From Candidatus Azambacteria bacterium (lineage in GTDB: Bacteria > Patescibacteriota > Minisyncoccia > GWC2-36-17 > M10-OD1-4): DNA of 15,154 nt. The stretch spans positions 1 to 15,154 of the forward strand of contig JACQDS010000033.1 in the NCBI GenBank assembly GCA_016200995.1. The letters are read 5' to 3'. The notes beneath the pieces are model-generated. The model had not been told where the DNA came from. It worked only from the letters and a program-made list of their open reading frames with translations, and did no database searches. The stretch's first letter is position 1, and every line of letters begins with the position of its first letter. Shown one piece after another: positions 1,566-13,503 of the stretch. Made by a program: the position numbers and the translations under genes.

Positions 1566-1784
1566 ATGAACAAAGACGCTTTAGCAGAGGCAGTGCAGTC
1601 AAAAGCAGGCCTCGATACAAAAAAATCAGCGCAAGACGCTGTAGACGCTGTGTTTGATACGATCTCAGCCGCTCTTTCAAAGGGTGATGAGGTTTCTATC
1701 GCCGGATTCGGCTCTTTTAAAACAGATAATAATTTTCTCTTCCGCTTTTTTTTCAATGATCGAGGCGGCGCTTTTTGCCGTTAA
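1566..1784 (+). pseudogene. HU-family DNA-binding protein, C-terminal half missing
   Basis: HU proteins are small dimeric nucleoid proteins of about 90 residues. The first 53 residues here (MNKDALAEAVQSKAGL to GFGSFKT) are a textbook HU N-terminal half: the two dimerisation helices and the start of the beta sheet, with the conserved GFGSF at nt 1704-1718. After Thr53 (nt 1722-1724) homology stops. The DNA-binding beta arm (the RxGRNPxTG region) and the C-terminal helix are absent, and the frame reads 19 unrelated residues to TAA at 1782-1784. The sequence after the break is the CNNM gene in another frame. The product could not form the HU DNA clamp. No Shine-Dalgarno site is evident. Either a real deletion or a false assembly join. 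Confidence 0.85.
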
Positions 1785-4264: not shown

Positions 4265-4293
4265 ATAACTTGGAGATTGAGTCTCCAAGTTAT
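4265..4293. terminator. Perfect 12-bp hairpin between convergent glyS and dedA
   Basis: ATAACTTGGAGA (4265-4276), loop TTGAG, TCTCCAAGTTAT (4282-4293): a perfect 12-bp stem directly after the glyS stop. Its right arm contains the stop codon of the minus-strand DedA gene (4290-4292). Read on the minus strand, the stem is followed by the T-rich TTATTTATTT, a reasonable intrinsic terminator. On the plus strand the downstream tract is less T-rich. Likely bidirectional, stronger for the minus-strand operon. Confidence 0.75.
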
Positions 4294-4985
4294 TGATGTT
4301 CTATCTTATCAAGGATCTTTTCCGATCTTTCAATAATTTTTTGTTTGAATTTCTTATCGTATATATTTTTTATATATAATATCAATATAAGCAGAGTCAC
4401 GATGACAAGCAGAGTGTGCTCCACCTTTTTCGCTTTGCTGACTATGACATCAACACTGCCGCCGAAGAGATAGCCGACGCTAATATATACAAGCACCCAT
4501 AAGATGGCGCCAGCGATGTTAAAGTACATAAATTTCACAAATGGCATACCGGAGGTGCCGGCTATAAAAGGTATGAACGGCCTGACCATACCGACGAACC
4601 TTCCGAAAAAAACGCTTTTTCCGCCGTGTTTTTTGAAAAACTTTTCTCCGTACCCAAGGTAATTTTTTTTATCAAGAACTTTGTCTATGTTTGCCAGTTT
4701 TTTTAATTCATATTTTTTAATGGCGTAAATGCCAAGAAGAAAGCTGACCAGGTCGCCAAGAACGGCTCCAAGCAATGCCAAAAACGCTGAATCAAAAGGG
4801 TCAATATAGTTTTGATAAATGAGGAATCCGACGATCATTAAAAGTGTGGTGCCGGGTATCAATATGCCGATAAAAACCACCGCTTCAAGAAGCGATACTG
4901 AAAATATCACCCAATAGCTCAAGATCCTATGGTTTAATATGAAACTGTAAATTATTTCAAGGATTGAAATTTCTGCTGTTGCCAT
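4290..4985 (-). CDS. DedA / VTT-domain family membrane protein
   Basis: 231 residues, several hydrophobic segments. DedA proteins are polytopic inner-membrane proteins; some members act as undecaprenyl-phosphate or phospholipid flippases and affect membrane homeostasis. Seen here: an early acidic residue in a membrane segment (SLLEAVVFIGILIPGTTLL), the family motif FGRFVGMVRPFIPFIAGTSGM with its arginines and the proline/glycine stretch, and a long C-terminal membrane helix (LLVIVTLLILILYI) with a basic tail. Length is usual for the family. It follows the nucleotidyltransferase gene by 6 nt on the same strand, so the two are co-transcribed; a link to surface glycan or lipid-carrier recycling is plausible but inferred. 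The stop lies inside the terminator hairpin. Confidence 0.9.
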   Translation of the reverse strand: MATAEISILEIIYSFILNHRILSYWVIFSVSLLEAVVFIGILIPGTTLLMIVGFLIYQNYIDPFDSAFLALLGAVLGDLVSFLLGIYAIKKYELKKLANIDKVLDKKNYLGYGEKFFKKHGGKSVFFGRFVGMVRPFIPFIAGTSGMPFVKFMYFNIAGAILWVLVYISVGYLFGGSVDVIVSKAKKVEHTLLVIVTLLILILYIKNIYDKKFKQKIIERSEKILDKIEHQ

Positions 4986-4991
4986 GATATT

Positions 4992-5711
4992 TTATTTTTT
5001 TCTTTTCTCGGCGACCCAGTTGTTCACCGCAAGAAGAGAGTCAAATGTGCCGGCATCTGTCCAATGGCCTTTTAAAATCTCAAAGGTCATCTCATTGTTT
5101 TTTACGTAAAAATTATTCAGATCGGTCACTTCGTACTCGCCTCTTTGCGAAGGCTTAAGGGTTGCGATGATGTCAAAAGCTTTTTTGTCGTACATATAAA
5201 GCCCAACAACCGCCAAATTGCTTTTTGGGTTTTTTGGTTTCTCTTTAATGGCGATGACCTTGCCATCTTTTACTTCCGCTACGCCGAATCTTTCAGGGTC
5301 GGAGACCTCTTTTAAAAATATCTTCGCGCCTTCTTTTTGATCTTTAAAATCTTCGCAGGCTTTTTTTATGTCATATTCAAATATGTTGTCTGAAAATATG
5401 ACAACGATTTTTTCTCCTCTGGCAAAATCTTTGGCGACATTGATGGCATCCGCCGGACCAAGAGGTTCTTTCTGGACCTCATAATGAAGCTTGACTCCAA
5501 ACTCGTCGCCAGACTCCAAGAGATTGATGAACTGGCCGGAATGTTCCGTGCCGGTGACTATTAAGATCTCTTTTATGCCAGCATCTCTTAACATCTCTAT
5601 GGAATAGTAGATCATCGGCTTGTCGTATATAGGCAGTAAGTTTTTATTAATCGTTTTTGTCAGAGGATAGAGCCTTGAGCCTTTTCCTCCGGCTATGATT
5701 ACACCCCTCAT
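4992..5711 (-). CDS. rfbA: Sugar-phosphate nucleotidyltransferase, RmlA/RfbA-like
   Basis: Would activate a sugar 1-phosphate with NTP, most likely glucose-1-phosphate with dTTP to dTDP-glucose, for surface polysaccharide synthesis. The N-terminal nucleotide-binding signature is GVIIAGGKGSRLYPLT (3-18) and NKNLLPIYDKPMIYYSIEML follows. FSDNIFE holds the metal-binding Asp (usually written GDN in the family), EKPKNPKSNLAVVGLYMYD carries the sugar-binding part, and WTDAGTFDSLL is the C-terminal signature. At 239 residues it is shorter than the classical RmlA of about 290, lacking the C-terminal allosteric extension, so substrate specificity is uncertain. First gene of a two-gene minus-strand operon; no other dTDP-rhamnose pathway genes are in the window. 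No clear Shine-Dalgarno site upstream. Confidence 0.88.
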   Translation of the reverse strand: MRGVIIAGGKGSRLYPLTKTINKNLLPIYDKPMIYYSIEMLRDAGIKEILIVTGTEHSGQFINLLESGDEFGVKLHYEVQKEPLGPADAINVAKDFARGEKIVVIFSDNIFEYDIKKACEDFKDQKEGAKIFLKEVSDPERFGVAEVKDGKVIAIKEKPKNPKSNLAVVGLYMYDKKAFDIIATLKPSQRGEYEVTDLNNFYVKNNEMTFEILKGHWTDAGTFDSLLAVNNWVAEKRKK

Positions 5712-5729
5712 AAAATTTTATTTCAAGCC

Positions 5730-5849
5730 ATAAAGCACCATCTGCTTTGTTGCGCCTCCGTGTCTCGCCTCAAAGTACATATAAGTACATCTCGGCTTCG
5801 ATACTCGGAGCGCCTCGCATCTGATGCCTTCTTGCTTGGAATGCTTTAT
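5730..5849. repeat. Outer inverted repeat around copy A
   Basis: ATAAAGCA (5730-5737) and TGCTTTAT (5842-5849) are exact inverse complements that bracket repeat copy A. With the inner imperfect stem they could extend it to a hairpin of about 120 nt. Copy B has no such flanks, so this may be a local pre-existing structure or chance. Confidence 0.4.
5738..5823. repeat. Dispersed GC-rich repeat, copy A
   Basis: About 86 bp between the divergent rfbA-like and zinc-ribbon genes. Its first 23 nt (5738-5760) are identical to 11558-11580, and its last 22 nt (5802-5823) match 11624-11645 with one change. The middle is variable but both copies keep ATAAGTACA. Both ends carry CATCTG in direct orientation. 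Internally an imperfect hairpin can form: CTCCG (5756-5760) with CGGAG (5806-5810), plus flanking GCG/CGC and a central GTAC pair. It is clearly more GC-rich than the surrounding AT-rich gap. No open frame looks coding. Confidence 0.85.
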
Positions 5850-5862
5850 TGTAAATATCTTT

Positions 5863-5871
5863 ATCATAGCA
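5863..5871 (-). promoter_or_regulatory. Candidate minus-strand extended -10 for rfbA-dedA
   Basis: On the minus strand TGCTATGAT (5871 down to 5863) is an extended -10 element. A -35 match is poor. Transcription from here would start near 5856 and place repeat copy A in the leader of the rfbA-like transcript. Confidence 0.35.
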
Positions 5872-5909
5872 GAAATTTTGAAATATTCCACTTTTTTCCT
5901 AAAAAGAGC

Positions 5910-5925
5910 TATACTATAAGGAGAG
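5910..5925 (+). promoter_or_regulatory. Candidate -10 box and GGAG site of the RNA-repair operon
   Basis: TATACT (5910-5915) resembles a -10 box; no convincing -35 at the right distance. AAGGAG (5918-5923) follows but is about 19 nt from ATG 5943, too far for an ideal Shine-Dalgarno. Only a weak indication of where the operon promoter lies. Confidence 0.3.
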
Positions 5926-5942
5926 CATTAATTTTAAAAAAT

Positions 5943-6443
5943 ATGAAAAATATAAGAAACAAACAAGCTCAAGAAAAGGATGAATTTCCGGTCGGCAAGA
6001 AGGGTTTTGCCGTCTGTTCCGGATGCGATGCCGTTTATCATAAAAAAAGCTGGCATCATGAAGAAAAGTTCGCGGATAAAATTGAAGGTATAAGAAAAGA
6101 GGCGGGAAGCGTCATCTGTCCGGCTTGCGAGAGGGAGAAAAACGACCTTTGCGAAGGATTTGTTGTCTTGATAGATATTCCGGAAGAAAAGATGCAAGAG
6201 GTCTTTAATCTTATACAGAATGTGGGAGAGAAAGCGATCAAAAATGATATCCTAAGCAGGATCACCAAGATGGAGGAAAGGGACGGGGATATTTATATCT
6301 GCACGACGGAAAATCAGCTTGCCGTCTCTTTGGGCAAGCAGATCCAAAAGGCATTTAAGGGCGAGGTTGATACTAATTGGTCCGGCAGAGACGGCATTGC
6401 CAGGGTGACTTGGAGATATCCGGCGCCCAAGCATGGAAAGTAG
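5943..6443 (+). CDS. BCAM0308/NMD3-like zinc-ribbon protein
   Basis: 166 residues, cytoplasmic, no membrane segment. Two Cys pairs form a zinc ribbon: C25-x2-C28 (VCSGCDAVYH, followed by a Trp) and C59-x2-C62 (ICPACER). Then come an alpha/beta region GFVVLIDIPEEKMQEVFNLIQNV and a C-terminal part containing CTTENQLAVSLGKQIQKAFKGEVD and a final WRY. This matches the layout of the uncharacterised BCAM0308 family as I remember it; its biochemical role is unknown, but its ribbon resembles RNA-associated NMD3-type proteins. I start at ATG 5943; the frame is open further up, but that region contains repeat copy A and intergenic sequence. The archease gene overlaps its end by 11 nt, so the two are translationally coupled; a role in RNA handling is inferred from this. 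Confidence 0.8.
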   Translation: MKNIRNKQAQEKDEFPVGKKGFAVCSGCDAVYHKKSWHHEEKFADKIEGIRKEAGSVICPACEREKNDLCEGFVVLIDIPEEKMQEVFNLIQNVGEKAIKNDILSRITKMEERDGDIYICTTENQLAVSLGKQIQKAFKGEVDTNWSGRDGIARVTWRYPAPKHGK

Positions 6444-6846
6444 ATATAAAATTTTAGAGCACACTGCCGATCTTAAGATACGATCATTTGGCAAAGACTT
6501 AAAAGAGCTTTTCTCAAACACCGCTTTTGCGATGACGGAGTTCATCTACGGAGAAAACTTAGCCGGAAAAACAGCGGATAAAAAAGAAAGGATAGAGATA
6601 AAAAGCAAAGACAGAGAATCGCTTTTGGTGGATTGGCTTTCCGAGATATTGTATCTTAGCAATGCAAATCGCATGGCTTACATAGGATATGATATAAAAG
6701 AAATTACCGATGTCAAGATAACAGCCGAAGTTTTTTCTTGTGAAGCAAAAGCCGCGGAGGATATAAAAGCGGCGACTTTTAACGATTTGGAGATCAAACA
6801 GCAAGAAGATGGAAATTGGACGGCGGTAGTCGTTTATGACATATGA
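6433..6846 (+). CDS. Archease, RtcB activator
   Basis: Archease speeds guanylylation of the RNA ligase RtcB and lets it turn over many times. 137 residues, the family length. Seen: YKILEHTADLKI (H10 to D13, the metal-site Asp region), SFGKDLKELFSNTAFAMTEFIY, the central DRESLLVDWLSEILYLSN motif, and the acidic C-terminus ending VVVYDI, where the last Asp belongs to the active site in the family. It overlaps the upstream zinc-ribbon gene by 11 nt and rtcB by 4 nt (ATGA at 6843-6846), a strong sign of coupled translation with its partner. Confidence 0.93.
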   Translation: MESRYKILEHTADLKIRSFGKDLKELFSNTAFAMTEFIYGENLAGKTADKKERIEIKSKDRESLLVDWLSEILYLSNANRMAYIGYDIKEITDVKITAEVFSCEAKAAEDIKAATFNDLEIKQQEDGNWTAVVVYDI

Positions 6847-8279
6847 TCTCAAAAAAAGATCTTAAAAAAATATCCGAGTATGTTTGGGAGATCCCAAGAT
6901 CTTTTCGTTCCGGCATGAGAGTGCCGGCAAGAATATATATAACGGAAAAAATGCTTGACGAAATATTGGATGAAAAAGCGATCGAGCAGCTTGTGAATGT
7001 TGCGACTTTGCCCGGTGTGGAGAGATGCGCGCTTGCGATGCCGGATATTCACCAGGGATACGGCTTTCCGATCGGCGGGGTGGCGGCTTTCAGGACGGAA
7101 GACGGAGTAATCTCTCCCGGAGGGGTCGGCTACGATATAAACTGCGGCGTCAGGCTTCTTTTAAGCAAATATTCTTATTTTGAAATAAAAGACAAGCTTC
7201 CGGAGCTTGCGACCGGCATTCAAAAAAGCGTGCCTTCCGGAGTCGGCAGAGGCGGCAAACTGATCTTAGGAAGGAGGGATTTTGATGAGGTTTTAAATAT
7301 GGGCGTTAATTGGGCGTTGAAAAATGGCTATGCCAAAAAAGAGGATCTGGAAGTTTTGGAGGAGAGCGGATGTTACGCTGGCGCCGACGCTTCATTAGTT
7401 TCGGATCACGCGAAAAAAAGAGGAGCCGATCAGCTCGGCACGATAGGTTCCGGCAATCATTTTTTGGAAGTTCAGGAGGTGGATGAAATTTATGACGAAA
7501 AGATTGCAAAGGAGTTTGGCTTGAGCGTCGGACAAGTGACCGTGATGATCCATACCGGATCTCGCGGGCTTGGGCATCAAGTCTGTACAGACTATGTCAG
7601 GCTTATGGACAGAGTGATAGAAAACTACAATATTCATTTGCCTGACAGAGAGCTTGCCTGCGCGCCGTTTCGTTCAAAAGAAGGCCGGGAATATTTTCAA
7701 GCTATGGCGGCCGCCGCCAACTTTGCTTGGACAAACAGGCAAGTCATAACTCACTCAATACGAGAAGTTTTTAAAAATCTTTTAAAGAATGGAGAAAAGG
7801 ATGAGCTTGATATCTTATATGATGTTGCGCACAATATCGCCAAACTTGAAAAGCATGAAGGCAAGGAATATATAGTTCATAGAAAAGGCGCGACAAGGGC
7901 GTTTGGTCCGGAAAGTCCGGAGCTTCCGGGGAAGTACCAAAAAACTGGCCAGCCGGTCTTGATCCCCGGCTCAATGGGGACTTACTCGTATGTTCTTGCG
8001 GGAACGGAAAGGTCGATGACCGAGGCTTTTGGTTCCTCTTGCCATGGCGCCGGAAGGCGGATCTCCAGAGTGGAGGCAAAAAGAAGGATCAGCCATGAAA
8101 GATTAAAAAATGAATTGGACAAATACGGCGTGGTTGTCAGAGCGGGCTCAAAAAGAGGCTTGGTGGAGGAGGCGCCGGAAGCCTACAAAGATGTGAATGA
8201 TGTTGTTGATGTTGTTTCAAAAAGCGGGCTGGCAAAAAAAGTCGCAAAATTGAAACCATTGGCTGTCATTAAAGGTTGA
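6843..8279 (+). CDS. rtcB: RNA-splicing ligase RtcB
   Basis: GTP-dependent RNA ligase that joins 2',3'-cyclic phosphate or 3'-phosphate ends to 5'-OH ends, used in tRNA splicing or RNA repair. 478 residues, full length, ending in the family signature LKPLAVIKG. Metal ligands and catalytic residues are present and in register with the archaeal enzyme: D98 and C101 (GYDINCGVRLL), H206 (GSGNHFLEVQ), H237 (HTGSRGLGHQV), H330 (YDVAHNIAKLE), and the guanylylated H401 (SSCHGAGRR) after PGSMGTYSYVLAG. It starts in a 4-nt overlap with archease. Bacterial RtcB usually serves repair of cleaved RNA, since introns in bacterial tRNA are rare; tRNA maturation cannot be excluded. Confidence 0.97.
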   Translation: MISKKDLKKISEYVWEIPRSFRSGMRVPARIYITEKMLDEILDEKAIEQLVNVATLPGVERCALAMPDIHQGYGFPIGGVAAFRTEDGVISPGGVGYDINCGVRLLLSKYSYFEIKDKLPELATGIQKSVPSGVGRGGKLILGRRDFDEVLNMGVNWALKNGYAKKEDLEVLEESGCYAGADASLVSDHAKKRGADQLGTIGSGNHFLEVQEVDEIYDEKIAKEFGLSVGQVTVMIHTGSRGLGHQVCTDYVRLMDRVIENYNIHLPDRELACAPFRSKEGREYFQAMAAAANFAWTNRQVITHSIREVFKNLLKNGEKDELDILYDVAHNIAKLEKHEGKEYIVHRKGATRAFGPESPELPGKYQKTGQPVLIPGSMGTYSYVLAGTERSMTEAFGSSCHGAGRRISRVEAKRRISHERLKNELDKYGVVVRAGSKRGLVEEAPEAYKDVNDVVDVVSKSGLAKKVAKLKPLAVIKG

Positions 8280-8285
8280 TCAATA

Positions 8286-9146
8286 ATGAAAAGAAATATG
8301 ATGACATATATTTTAATACTGGTTTTAAGTTTATTGTTCATAAGCTTGCTGGGTTTTTGGTCTAATGTCAGGCCTCAAAAGATAGACCTTGGATATCTGC
8401 CTGCTGATTTTTCCTTGGAGCCTGAAGGTGTTGTTTTAAATACAAAAGATAATTTACGCTTGTCGGCTTGGTATATTCCAAAAAAGGATAAAAATAAAAA
8501 TGACAGATCAGTGATAATGATATTGCACGGCTATCCTGCAGAGAAATCCGATATGCTTAGTTTTGCGAAAGCCCTTAATCCTTATTTTTCAACGCTGCTT
8601 TTGGATATGCGTTATTTCGGGAAAAGCGAAGGAAAATATTCAACGCTTGGATGCAGGGAGCAAGATGATCTCTCGCAGGCGGTGGACTTTTTAAAAAACA
8701 AAGGCTATGAGAAAATAGGAGTGCTTGGTTTCTCGCTTGGCGGCGCTGTCGGTATAATGGCGGCAGAGAAAGATGAGAGAATAAACGCCGTGGTCTCTTA
8801 TGCTTCATTTTCCAATTTGCCTAAGCTCGCAAGAGAGCTTTATTGGTTTTTGCCTGTCGTTAATTATCCGATGGTTGAGCTGATGGATCTTTTTGGAAAA
8901 GCTTTTTTCGGCTGCGATTTTAAAAAAGATTCTCCGGAAAATTCCGCCAAGCAATTAAAAATTCCCGTTTTGATATCGCATTCAATGGAAGACGAACAGA
9001 TTTCGTTTTCTCACGCCAAAGACTTGGAAAGATCTTTGAAAGGAGATCAAAATGCCGAATTTTATTTTTTTGAAAAAGGCAGGCACGGATATTTGCCGGC
9101 GGATTTTAATGAAAGGCTTATAAAATTTTTTGAAAAAAGCTTATGA
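8286..9146 (+). CDS. Membrane-anchored alpha/beta hydrolase
   Basis: 286 residues. The N-terminal hydrophobic helix (about 8-24) looks like an uncleaved anchor or signal, putting the catalytic domain outside the cytoplasmic membrane. An alpha/beta-hydrolase fold follows: MILHGYPAEKSDM with the oxyanion-hole HG, LLLDMRYFGKSEGKYSTLG, the nucleophile elbow GFSLGG with Ser150, then Asp236 (SMEDEQ) and His267 (KGRHGYL) completing the triad. It resembles the BEM46/FrsA-like esterase or peptidase group; the substrate is unknown. The gene follows rtcB by 6 nt and overlaps the next gene by 4 nt, so it belongs to the same operon, although a role in RNA repair is hard to square with an extracytoplasmic enzyme. 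Confidence 0.88.
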   Translation: MKRNMMTYILILVLSLLFISLLGFWSNVRPQKIDLGYLPADFSLEPEGVVLNTKDNLRLSAWYIPKKDKNKNDRSVIMILHGYPAEKSDMLSFAKALNPYFSTLLLDMRYFGKSEGKYSTLGCREQDDLSQAVDFLKNKGYEKIGVLGFSLGGAVGIMAAEKDERINAVVSYASFSNLPKLARELYWFLPVVNYPMVELMDLFGKAFFGCDFKKDSPENSAKQLKIPVLISHSMEDEQISFSHAKDLERSLKGDQNAEFYFFEKGRHGYLPADFNERLIKFFEKSL

Positions 9147-9781
9147 TCTTTAAAGACAGAAAAGAGGCCGGAGAGAAGTTGGCGGAAAAACTTAGGAACT
9201 ATGCAAATAAAAAAGATACGGTTGTTTTAGGGTTGCCAAGAGGCGGAGTGGTGGTCGCTTTTGAAGCGGCGCAAAAGCTAAATTTGCCGCTGGATATTTT
9301 AGTGCCAAGAAAGATAGGTCTTCCGCAAGATCCGGAAATGGCGATCGGAGCGATCGCGGAGGGTTTTGACGGCATATTTAACAATGAGATCATAAAGGAG
9401 TTGAATATTTCAAAAGAAGAGATCAAAAATGAGGTTAAAAAAGAAAAGGAGGAAATGGCAAGACGGCTGAAGCTGTACAGAGGCGAGAAGCCGCCGCTTG
9501 ATCTTAAAGGAAAAACCGCGATAATCGTTGATGATGGGATAGCGACCGGATACACTATGCTTGCTTCCATTTTTTCCGCAAAGGCGAAAGGCGCAAAAAA
9601 AGTCATAGTAGCGGCGCCGGTGATCGCTCTTGACACCATTGGAAAAATAAAAAAAGAATCGGATGAGCTTGTCTATCTTGATGCGCCGGAGATCTTTTGG
9701 TCGGTCGGAATGTTTTACGAAGATTTTCCGCAGATTGAGGATAATGAAGTGATGAGGCTTTTGAAAATTGCATATAAATGA
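9143..9781 (+). CDS. Phosphoribosyltransferase family protein
   Basis: 212 residues of the type I phosphoribosyltransferase fold. The PRPP-binding loop is TAIIVDDGIATGYTM, with the acidic pair D130-D131; LGLPRGGVVVAFEAA gives the pyrophosphate-binding loop. The basic LVPRKIGLPQDPEMAIGAIAEG stretch is typical of the stand-alone predicted phosphoribosyltransferases often found beside dienelactone-hydrolase or alpha/beta-hydrolase genes. The base acceptor is unknown. Starts in the ATGA overlap with the upstream hydrolase (9143-9146); the neighbouring pair hydrolase plus phosphoribosyltransferase recurs in other bacteria. Last gene of the tightly overlapped block; the adaptor gene starts 21 nt later. 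Confidence 0.9.
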   Translation: MIFKDRKEAGEKLAEKLRNYANKKDTVVLGLPRGGVVVAFEAAQKLNLPLDILVPRKIGLPQDPEMAIGAIAEGFDGIFNNEIIKELNISKEEIKNEVKKEKEEMARRLKLYRGEKPPLDLKGKTAIIVDDGIATGYTMLASIFSAKAKGAKKVIVAAPVIALDTIGKIKKESDELVYLDAPEIFWSVGMFYEDFPQIEDNEVMRLLKIAYK

Positions 9782-12345: not shown

Positions 12346-12867
12346 ATGAATACAAAACATAGTATTCAAACAGCTTACGGAGGAATAGCCTCTCACAAAG
12401 GGAGGTCTATTTTGACGCTTTTGGGAATAGTTATCGGCATCGCCTCCATTATGATGATAATCTCAATAGGCAAAGGAGCGGAGGGCTTGATACTAAATCA
12501 GATAAACAGCATGGGCGGGGATATTGTGGTCATTCGTCCCGGCAAAGAGCCGACAGGGCCCTCCGATGTAGCCGGCACTATATTTGCCGATTCTTTAAAA
12601 AAACGCGACATTGAGGCTTTAAAGAAAAGCCAGAATGTACCGCATATTACCGATATCGCTCCGGTAGTCATTGTCACCGGTAGCGTTGCATATGAGAGCG
12701 AAACATATCGTCCGCAGATATTCGGTTGGTCGGTTGAATTTATGGAAGAGATGTTCAAAGTCTATCCGCAGGAAGGATATTTTTTCAACGAAAACGACAT
12801 CAAAGACATGAGCGAAGAGTTGAAGACCCGGCTGCGCGGATTGCGGAAGCTGATCAAGAACGAGTAA
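12346..12867 (+). pseudogene. MacB-type permease, N-terminal fragment
   Basis: Residues 1 to about 156 are a normal MacB/FtsX-family permease start: a cytoplasmic lead (HSIQTAYGGIASHKGRSILTLLGIVIGIASIMMIISIG), the first membrane helix at about 22-41, and the extracytoplasmic MacB core domain (SMGGDIVVIRPGKEP ... ITDIAPVVIVTGSV ... VYPQEGYFFNENDI). After NDIKDMS (near nt 12815) the expected continuation (an RVAVLG-like strand and on to the second half of the core domain) is missing. Instead 17 unrelated residues, Arg/Lys/Leu-rich, run to TAA at 12865-12867. This fragment keeps one of four membrane helices and cannot form the channel alone. Confidence 0.85.
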
Positions 12868-12876
12868 AGCGATTGA
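12816..12876 (+). other. Foreign-looking GC-rich filler inside the permease gene
   Basis: About 61 bp where permease homology is absent, between the N-terminal part ending NDIKDMS and the C-terminal part resuming at VVVVPYSTAQ. It is noticeably richer in G and C (for example ACCCGGCTGCGCGGATTGCG) than the flanks, reads EELKTRLRGLRKLIKNE then TAA (12865), and is followed by a TGA (12874). It looks like the tail of another gene. The flanking permease parts stay in the same reading frame. Confidence 0.6.
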
Positions 12877-12885
12877 GTTGTCGTT

Positions 12886-13503
12886 GTGCCGTATTCCACC
12901 GCTCAAACATATCTTTTGGGAATAGATTATTACAATGAAGTGATGGCAAAAGTTGAGGGTCCGGAATTTGTAGCCGGCACAGTAGAGGATATAAAGTCTA
13001 CCATTCGGGAAAATCATAATATCACCGATCCGAAAAAAGATGATTTTTTTGTCGTCACGCAGGAGGGCTTGGTCAGCCAGATATCGACGATCATCGGCGC
13101 TTTAACAGCCTTTCTTTCTTCGGTGGTTGCGATAGCCTTGGTCGTCGGAGGGATAGGGGTGATGAATATAATGCTTGTTTCCGTGACGGAAAGAACGAAA
13201 GAGATAGGTCTTCGCAAAGCTTTGGGAGCGACCGACAAAGACATCCTTTTGCAATTTTTAATAGAGGCTATAATGCTCACCGCCTTTGGCGGGATCATAG
13301 GAATAATAAGCGGAGCGGCTCTTTCTTTGATAGCTTCGTACATATTGAGAGAGTTCATGCAGTTGGACTGGGTCTTCTCTTTTCCGTTTTCCGCCGCTTT
13401 GCTAGGTTTTGGCGTTTCCGCCCTTGTCGGCTTGGTGTTTGGCATCTATCCTGCCAGAAAAGCCTCCCGGAAAAGCCCTATGGAAGCATTGAGGTATGAA
13501 TAG
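12886..13503 (+). pseudogene. MacB-type permease, C-terminal fragment (FtsX domain)
   Basis: Carries the rest of the permease: the VPYSTAQTYLLGIDYYNEVMAKV end of the extracytoplasmic domain, then the FtsX-like domain with three membrane helices (about ALTAFLSSVVAIALVVGGIGVMNIM; AIMLTAFGGIIGIISGAALSLIA; AALLGFGVSALVGLVFGIYP). The conserved coupling segment ERTKEIGLRKALGATDKDIL and the family C-terminus ARKASRKSPMEALRYE are present. GTG 12886 is only the first possible start codon after the break; there is no Shine-Dalgarno, so separate translation is unlikely. It lies in the same frame as the N-terminal fragment, with TAA (12865) and TGA (12874) between. About 30 codons net appear to be missing from the whole gene. 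Confidence 0.85.

What the first reader, a model, noticed from the sequence alone, without database searches (positions are those of the whole stretch)
5943..8279. Zinc-ribbon BCAM0308-like gene translationally coupled to archease-RtcB
The 11-nt overlap with archease and the 4-nt overlap of archease with rtcB suggest stoichiometric co-expression. Archease and RtcB are established partners in RNA ligation. The zinc-ribbon family has no known function, so this order suggests a third component, for example one that recognises damaged RNA or ribosomal substrates. This is the best candidate in the window for an undescribed functional module.
Basis: partly seen in the sequence, partly recalled or inferred. 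Interest (0 to 1): 0.7.

Follow-up and report, generated by a model that had tools for sequence, protein, structure and literature searches.

The report
Nmd3-like protein coupled to RNA ligase
A tiny bacterium carries, in one overlapping gene run, a small zinc protein that resembles the core of a eukaryotic ribosome-assembly factor, together with an RNA-repair ligase and its activator, which suggests but does not prove that they cooperate in looking after damaged or idle ribosomes.

Summary
In detail: the BCAM0308-like gene (5943-6443) overlaps archease (6433-6846) by 11 nt, which overlaps rtcB (6843-8279) by 4 nt. The zinc-ribbon protein reaches Pfam's NMD3 cut-off, and AlphaFold models of it and of an alphaproteobacterial relative match Nmd3 chains best: one zinc centre plus the eL22-like domain that Nmd3 places in the ribosomal P site, without the rest of Nmd3. 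The neighbourhood recurs, but rarely. Of 383 class genomes 53 have the gene, 62 archease, 14 both; the two are adjacent in 2 of 14 (probably separate events) and within 20 kb in 5 of 14. Of 80 named loci, mostly Proteobacteria, 3 have archease-RtcB nearby. Against a dedicated third subunit: 39 of 53 carriers show no archease, and syntenic G002 keeps the gene in place while no archease or RtcB was found in its genome. Most likely it is a ribosome-binding stress factor that in this lineage shares an operon with an RNA-repair pair; direct partnership in ligation is untested.

The parts
5943..6443 (+). BCAM0308-like gene, 166 aa: CxxC...CxxC zinc ribbon (residues 25, 28, 59, 62) followed by an Nmd3 eL22-like domain (about 70-162)
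   Evidence: NF040826 101.3 bits, cut-off 100; Pfam NMD3 25.8 bits, cut-off 24.9; model pLDDT 90.6; Nmd3 match
6433..6846 (+). archease, 137 aa; start lies inside the first gene (11-nt overlap)
   Evidence: PF01951 103.6 bits; overlap
6843..8279 (+). rtcB RNA ligase, 478 aa; 4-nt overlap with archease
   Evidence: PF01139 590.3 bits over profile 1-426; five motifs that I recall as active-site motifs are present
8286..9146 (+). alpha/beta hydrolase, next gene of the same run
   Evidence: PF00561 47.6 bits and others; 6-nt gap after rtcB
9143..9781 (+). phosphoribosyltransferase, 4-nt overlap with the hydrolase; its homologues lie in 21 of 80 BCAM0308 loci
   Evidence: PF00156 70.6 bits
9803..11536 (+). 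efflux adaptor-like gene (name by eye); in G002 its homologue directly follows the BCAM0308-like gene with a 4-nt overlap

Best explanation
The first gene encodes a minimal bacterial Nmd3-type factor: one zinc ribbon and the eL22-like domain, which in eukaryotic Nmd3 lies in the P site of the large ribosomal subunit. It most likely binds the joining face of the large subunit of idle or damaged ribosomes. Here it heads a tightly coupled run with archease and RtcB, so that a ribosome-holding factor and an RNA ligase with its activator are made together: the Nmd3-core protein keeps the subunit out of translation while archease-activated RtcB reseals cleaved rRNA or tRNA. It works beside RtcB, not as an obligatory subunit of it. 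Shown: the genes, the overlaps, sparse recurrence of the neighbourhood, the predicted Nmd3-like fold. Inferred: one transcript, ribosome binding and its site, stress timing in this organism, and cooperation with RtcB.
Against: The gene lives without archease in 39 of 53 class genomes, and G002 has neither archease nor RtcB match. Genome-level co-occurrence is weak: p 0.028 in the class sample, 0.049 without the window, 0.12 in the 54 relatives, none corrected for kinship. 77 of 80 named loci lack archease-RtcB. G504 has no RtcB match. Some members have lost zinc ligands. No ribosome or RNA binding was tested.
Confidence: 0.42

Rival explanations
1. Loose operon neighbours. The protein is an Nmd3-core stress factor that works alone; archease-rtcB (with the hydrolase and the phosphoribosyltransferase) is a separate cassette that came to lie between it and the efflux genes. 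Shared transcription is convenient and there is no joint mechanism.
For: In syntenic G002 the BCAM0308-like gene overlaps the adaptor gene directly and the four-gene block is absent. The usual left neighbour in the class is a permease, in 9 of 15 relatives. 39 of 53 carriers show no archease. Stress islands gather many unrelated genes.
Against: Adjacency in the same order in two genomes that do not group in the trees and proximity in 5 of 14 genomes exceed random placement; a same-strand run from archease to the gene in G017.
Confidence: 0.38
2. Third subunit of the ligase: the zinc-ribbon protein binds archease or RtcB directly and recognises the damaged RNA.
For: Overlapping genes, which imply matched synthesis; recurrence; a zinc ribbon can bind RNA (general knowledge).
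Against: Most carriers of the gene have no archease match, and in 9 of 12 other genomes with all three genes it is on a different contig. The fold points to the ribosome, not to RtcB. No complex was modelled.
Confidence: 0.12
3. The Nmd3 likeness is only a common alpha/beta fold, and the protein is a zinc protein of another kind.
Against: The same 14 pre-60S entries lead for both models, and a sequence profile independently finds NMD3 in 74 of 85 members, 40.8 bits in L118.
Confidence: 0.08

Closest known systems
Archease-RtcB operon (PMC3973293; abstract and passages seen)
   Same: Archease directly before rtcB on one strand; both families over cut-off
   Different: An Nmd3-core gene is coupled in front, and a hydrolase and a phosphoribosyltransferase follow
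RtcB2-PrfH ribosome-rescue module (PMC9223846 abstract and passages; PMC1586002 abstract; PMC6514570 passages)
   Same: RtcB in an operon with a ribosome-acting partner; L118 adds an RF-1/GGQ protein between RtcB and BCAM0308
   Different: No PrfH-type gene in the window run; the partner here is Nmd3-like
BCAM0308 family of the lxa low-oxygen island (PMC4981469 passages)
   Same: Same NCBIfam family; a phosphoribosyltransferase family shared with 21 of 80 BCAM0308 loci
   Different: No Hsp20 or universal stress gene seen among the seven window proteins scanned; archease-RtcB is not usual in such islands (3 of 80)
Eukaryotic Nmd3 (PMC6393466 passages)
   Same: Zinc centre followed by the eL22-like domain
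   Different: 166 aa only; lacks the first zinc centre and the eIF5A-like domain; bacterial; no evidence of an assembly or export role

Membership tests
Archease (PF01951) | Profile score over the curated cut-off across the domain | tested here: met
   103.6 bits against 25, profile 1-136
RtcB RNA ligase (PF01139) | Profile score over the cut-off across the domain | tested here: met
   590.3 bits against 27, profile 1-426
RtcB RNA ligase (PF01139) | Active-site motifs present (motifs recalled, not from a call) | tested here: met
   All five motifs found in the translation
RtcB RNA ligase (PF01139) | GTP-dependent 3'-5' RNA ligation | not testable with these tools
   Needs an assay
BCAM0308 family (NF040826) | Profile score over the curated cut-off | tested here: met
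   101.3 bits against 100, a narrow pass
NMD3 | Pfam NMD3 score over the cut-off | tested here: met
   25.8 bits against 24.9, narrow, profile 131-219 of 243 only
NMD3 | Full architecture: two zinc centres, eL22-like and eIF5A-like domains | tested here: not met
   One zinc ribbon and one domain in 166 aa, against the architecture in PMC6393466
NMD3 | eL22-like domain fold | tested here: met
NMD3 | Binds the large ribosomal subunit | not testable with these tools
   Needs biochemistry
RtcB2-PrfH module | PrfH release factor gene directly beside rtcB | tested here: not met
   Neighbours of rtcB are archease and an alpha/beta hydrolase
lxa-type low-oxygen stress island | Hsp20, universal stress proteins and a Crp/Fnr regulator around BCAM0308 | tested here: inconclusive
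   None among the seven window proteins scanned, but other window ORFs were not scanned; the phosphoribosyltransferase family is shared

The most novel reading that the evidence does not exclude
The BCAM0308 family is a bacterial, stripped-down Nmd3 (zinc centre plus P-site domain) that occupies the large subunit of damaged or resting ribosomes, and in some Patescibacteria and Alphaproteobacteria it forms, with archease-RtcB (in one case also with a GGQ release-factor-domain protein), an undescribed operon for holding and repairing ribosomes, analogous to RtcB-PrfH.
Probability: 0.3. Interest if true: 0.75.

Novelty: new variant of a known kind. Interest (0 to 1): 0.5.

Why it matters
What bacterial RtcB repairs is established in few cases (recalled, apart from the papers cited). 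A link to a protein built like the P-site core of Nmd3 would point to the ribosome as the workplace, give a testable function to a stress-island family that has none, and suggest that an Nmd3-type factor, known from eukaryotes and archaea, also guards bacterial ribosomes.

Tried and rejected
PDB sequence searches gave only repeat artefacts and chance rows: designed repeat proteins and a putative transporter for the single sequence, a nanobody for the profile. Plain Foldseek gave one row with E <= 0.001, a designed protein; the best pre-60S entry had E 0.018. The Nmd3 reading rests on VIA-align and Pfam. A viral-contig scan with the alphaproteobacterial alignment found no relative, and the viral structure library gave no row with E <= 0.001; a phage origin is not supported, though only those two searches were made. 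Hydrolase and phosphoribosyltransferase as fixed companions of RtcB in the class: not supported, no homologue of either at E <= 1e-4 in the fetched stretches given. The promoter scan showed no promoter-like site at 5712-5942. An even phylum sample (8 of 379 genomes with a match) and the order of G504 (3 of 23) were not used for the adjacency counts. Literature: searches on BCAM0308, NMD3 with RtcB or archease, archaeal NMD3, Nmd3-like/COG1499, NMD3 with hibernation or lxa and NMD3-domain neighbourhoods listed no paper that I saw joining this family to archease-RtcB. Listings were capped at 8-20 titles, only open-licence PMC papers are held, and a 2016 review of RNA repair systems was not held, so earlier description cannot be excluded.

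Full report
The observation. The BCAM0308-like gene (5943-6443) overlaps archease (6433-6846) by 11 nt, which overlaps rtcB (6843-8279) by 4 nt. Family scans name them BCAM0308 (NF040826, 101.3 bits, cut-off 100), Archease (103.6 bits) and RtcB (590.3 bits). An alpha/beta hydrolase and a phosphoribosyltransferase continue the run. The genome held has 612,635 bases in 96 contigs, 86.7% complete, with one archease match and one RtcB match.

Does the neighbourhood recur in the class? In 54 close relatives, the window's genome included, 16 have the BCAM0308-like gene and 19 archease, 8 both (Fisher p 0.12). In an even sample of 383 genomes of the class, 53 have the former, 62 the latter and 14 both, against 8.6 expected (p 0.028; 0.049 without the window; kinship not corrected). 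In 2 of the 14 the genes are adjacent in the same order: the window and G504, where the overlap is 14 nt. In 5 of 14 they lie within 20 kb (gaps between matches 23 nt, 5 nt, 7.8, 9.2 and 16.6 kb), against 0.8 expected for random placement in 700 kb (p 0.0008); without the window 4 of 13 (p 0.005). In the other nine they are on different contigs, and fragmentation makes these hard to read. In G008 the two are on opposite strands. In G017 the stretch from archease through RtcB, an ORF without a Pfam match, ThiI, a beta-CASP RNase-like gene, a SLOG-like gene, an MgtC-like gene (name by eye) and a permease to the BCAM0308-like gene is on one strand (RNase, SLOG and permease were named on their L047 homologues). 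In G504 no RtcB match was found; a reverse-transcriptase ORF follows archease and the contig ends about 1.5 kb after archease.

Independence. In the archease tree (37 class rows, of 62 genomes with a match, plus 3 alphaproteobacterial) the window and G504 do not group. In the BCAM0308 tree (46 rows) the window groups with P0004 and G002 (100/100), and G504 with P0006, G539, P0009 and P0025 (87/86). Several inner forks are weak, so separate origin is likely rather than proven.

Other phyla. A scan of named genomes with an alphaproteobacterial alignment kept the best 80 of 88 loci, mostly Proteobacteria. Three carry archease and RtcB upstream on the same strand: L118, L121 (Hyphomicrobium) and L132 (Rhodovibrio); 77 do not, some on short contigs, and the archease profile was built from only seven sequences. 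If every 5-Mb genome had one such pair, about 0.25 would be expected in the 1.26 Mb read, but these are gene-rich stress islands, so that null is generous. In L118 the order is archease, RtcB, an RF-1-domain protein with a GGQ motif, BCAM0308. In L121 a gene on the other strand and a DUF3775-type gene lie between RtcB and BCAM0308. Homologues of the window's phosphoribosyltransferase lie in 21 of 80 loci. Clusters whose tested representatives are Hsp20 (11 loci), dienelactone-hydrolase-like (14), PRPP-synthetase-like (14) and another phosphoribosyltransferase (9) recur. Two Azospirillum plasmid loci show Hsp20-BCAM0308 with universal stress proteins and no annotated archease or RtcB, in a gene table known to be incomplete. 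In Burkholderia contaminans the BCAM0308 orthologue, part of the lxa locus, was 89.9-, 11.6- and 61.8-fold higher in one isolate than in another in three media (PMC4981469, passages).

Against a dedicated trio. 39 of 53 class genomes with the gene have no archease match. The usual left neighbour in the class is a permease-like gene: 9 of 15 relatives, in one with a small ORF on the other strand between. G002, of the same family, is syntenic with the window through rny (78% identity), glyS (80%), the BCAM0308-like gene (53%), the adaptor (47%) and the ABC genes (71-73%), but the archease-rtcB-hydrolase-phosphoribosyltransferase block is missing: there the BCAM0308-like gene overlaps the adaptor by 4 nt. 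No archease or RtcB match was found in its genome (98% complete). Either the block came into the window's line or was lost in G002's; the data cannot say which. G001, same genus, has no match for any of the three.

Mechanism. I judge it most likely that the protein is a large-subunit ribosome factor of stressed cells and that, in lines like this one, it has come under common control with an RNA-repair pair. That RtcB works with ribosome-acting proteins has precedent in RtcB2-PrfH (PMC9223846, abstract and passages). Direct physical partnership is possible, but no result here demands it.

Novelty. The family, the archease-RtcB operon and RtcB operons with ribosome factors are each known. The combination was not seen in the searches, which cover open-licence papers only. 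Some databases already name members NMD3-related or 'NMD protein affecting ribosome stability and mRNA decay', so the relation to NMD3 is not new in itself.

Noticed in passing
window 1566-1784: HU-like ORF of 72 aa keeps the HU start but departs after about 51 residues from the 91-aa homologue of G002 (L036:11737-12012, comparison by eye); the following ORF 1654-2739 overlaps it. A deletion or an assembly junction is possible.
   Followed up: partly
window 12346-13503: An ABC permease reads as two ORFs (12346-12867 and 12886-13503), both matching one 414-aa ORF in G002: a broken gene or a sequence error.
   Followed up: partly
window 4290-5711: Two minus-strand genes (DedA-like and nucleotidyltransferase) lie between glyS and the BCAM0308-like gene; in G002 only 53 nt separate those two.
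   Followed up: partly
L092:10199-11185: Reverse-transcriptase ORF (PF00078, 62.3 bits) directly after the BCAM0308-archease pair of G504, in a genome without an RtcB match.
   Followed up: no
L046:8125-8673, L050:8033-8578, L096:9044-9580: Family members in which one or more of the four zinc cysteines are replaced although the rest of the protein aligns.
   Followed up: no
L047:3122-8454: A recurrent same-strand cluster in the class: ThiI-like, beta-CASP RNase, SLOG family, MgtC-like (by eye), permease, BCAM0308-like. It may be the family's older home in this class.
   Followed up: partly
L118:7602-8027: A 141-aa RF-1-domain protein with GGQ (PF00472, 67.8 bits) sits between RtcB and BCAM0308, echoing RtcB-PrfH with a shorter release-factor protein.
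   Followed up: no
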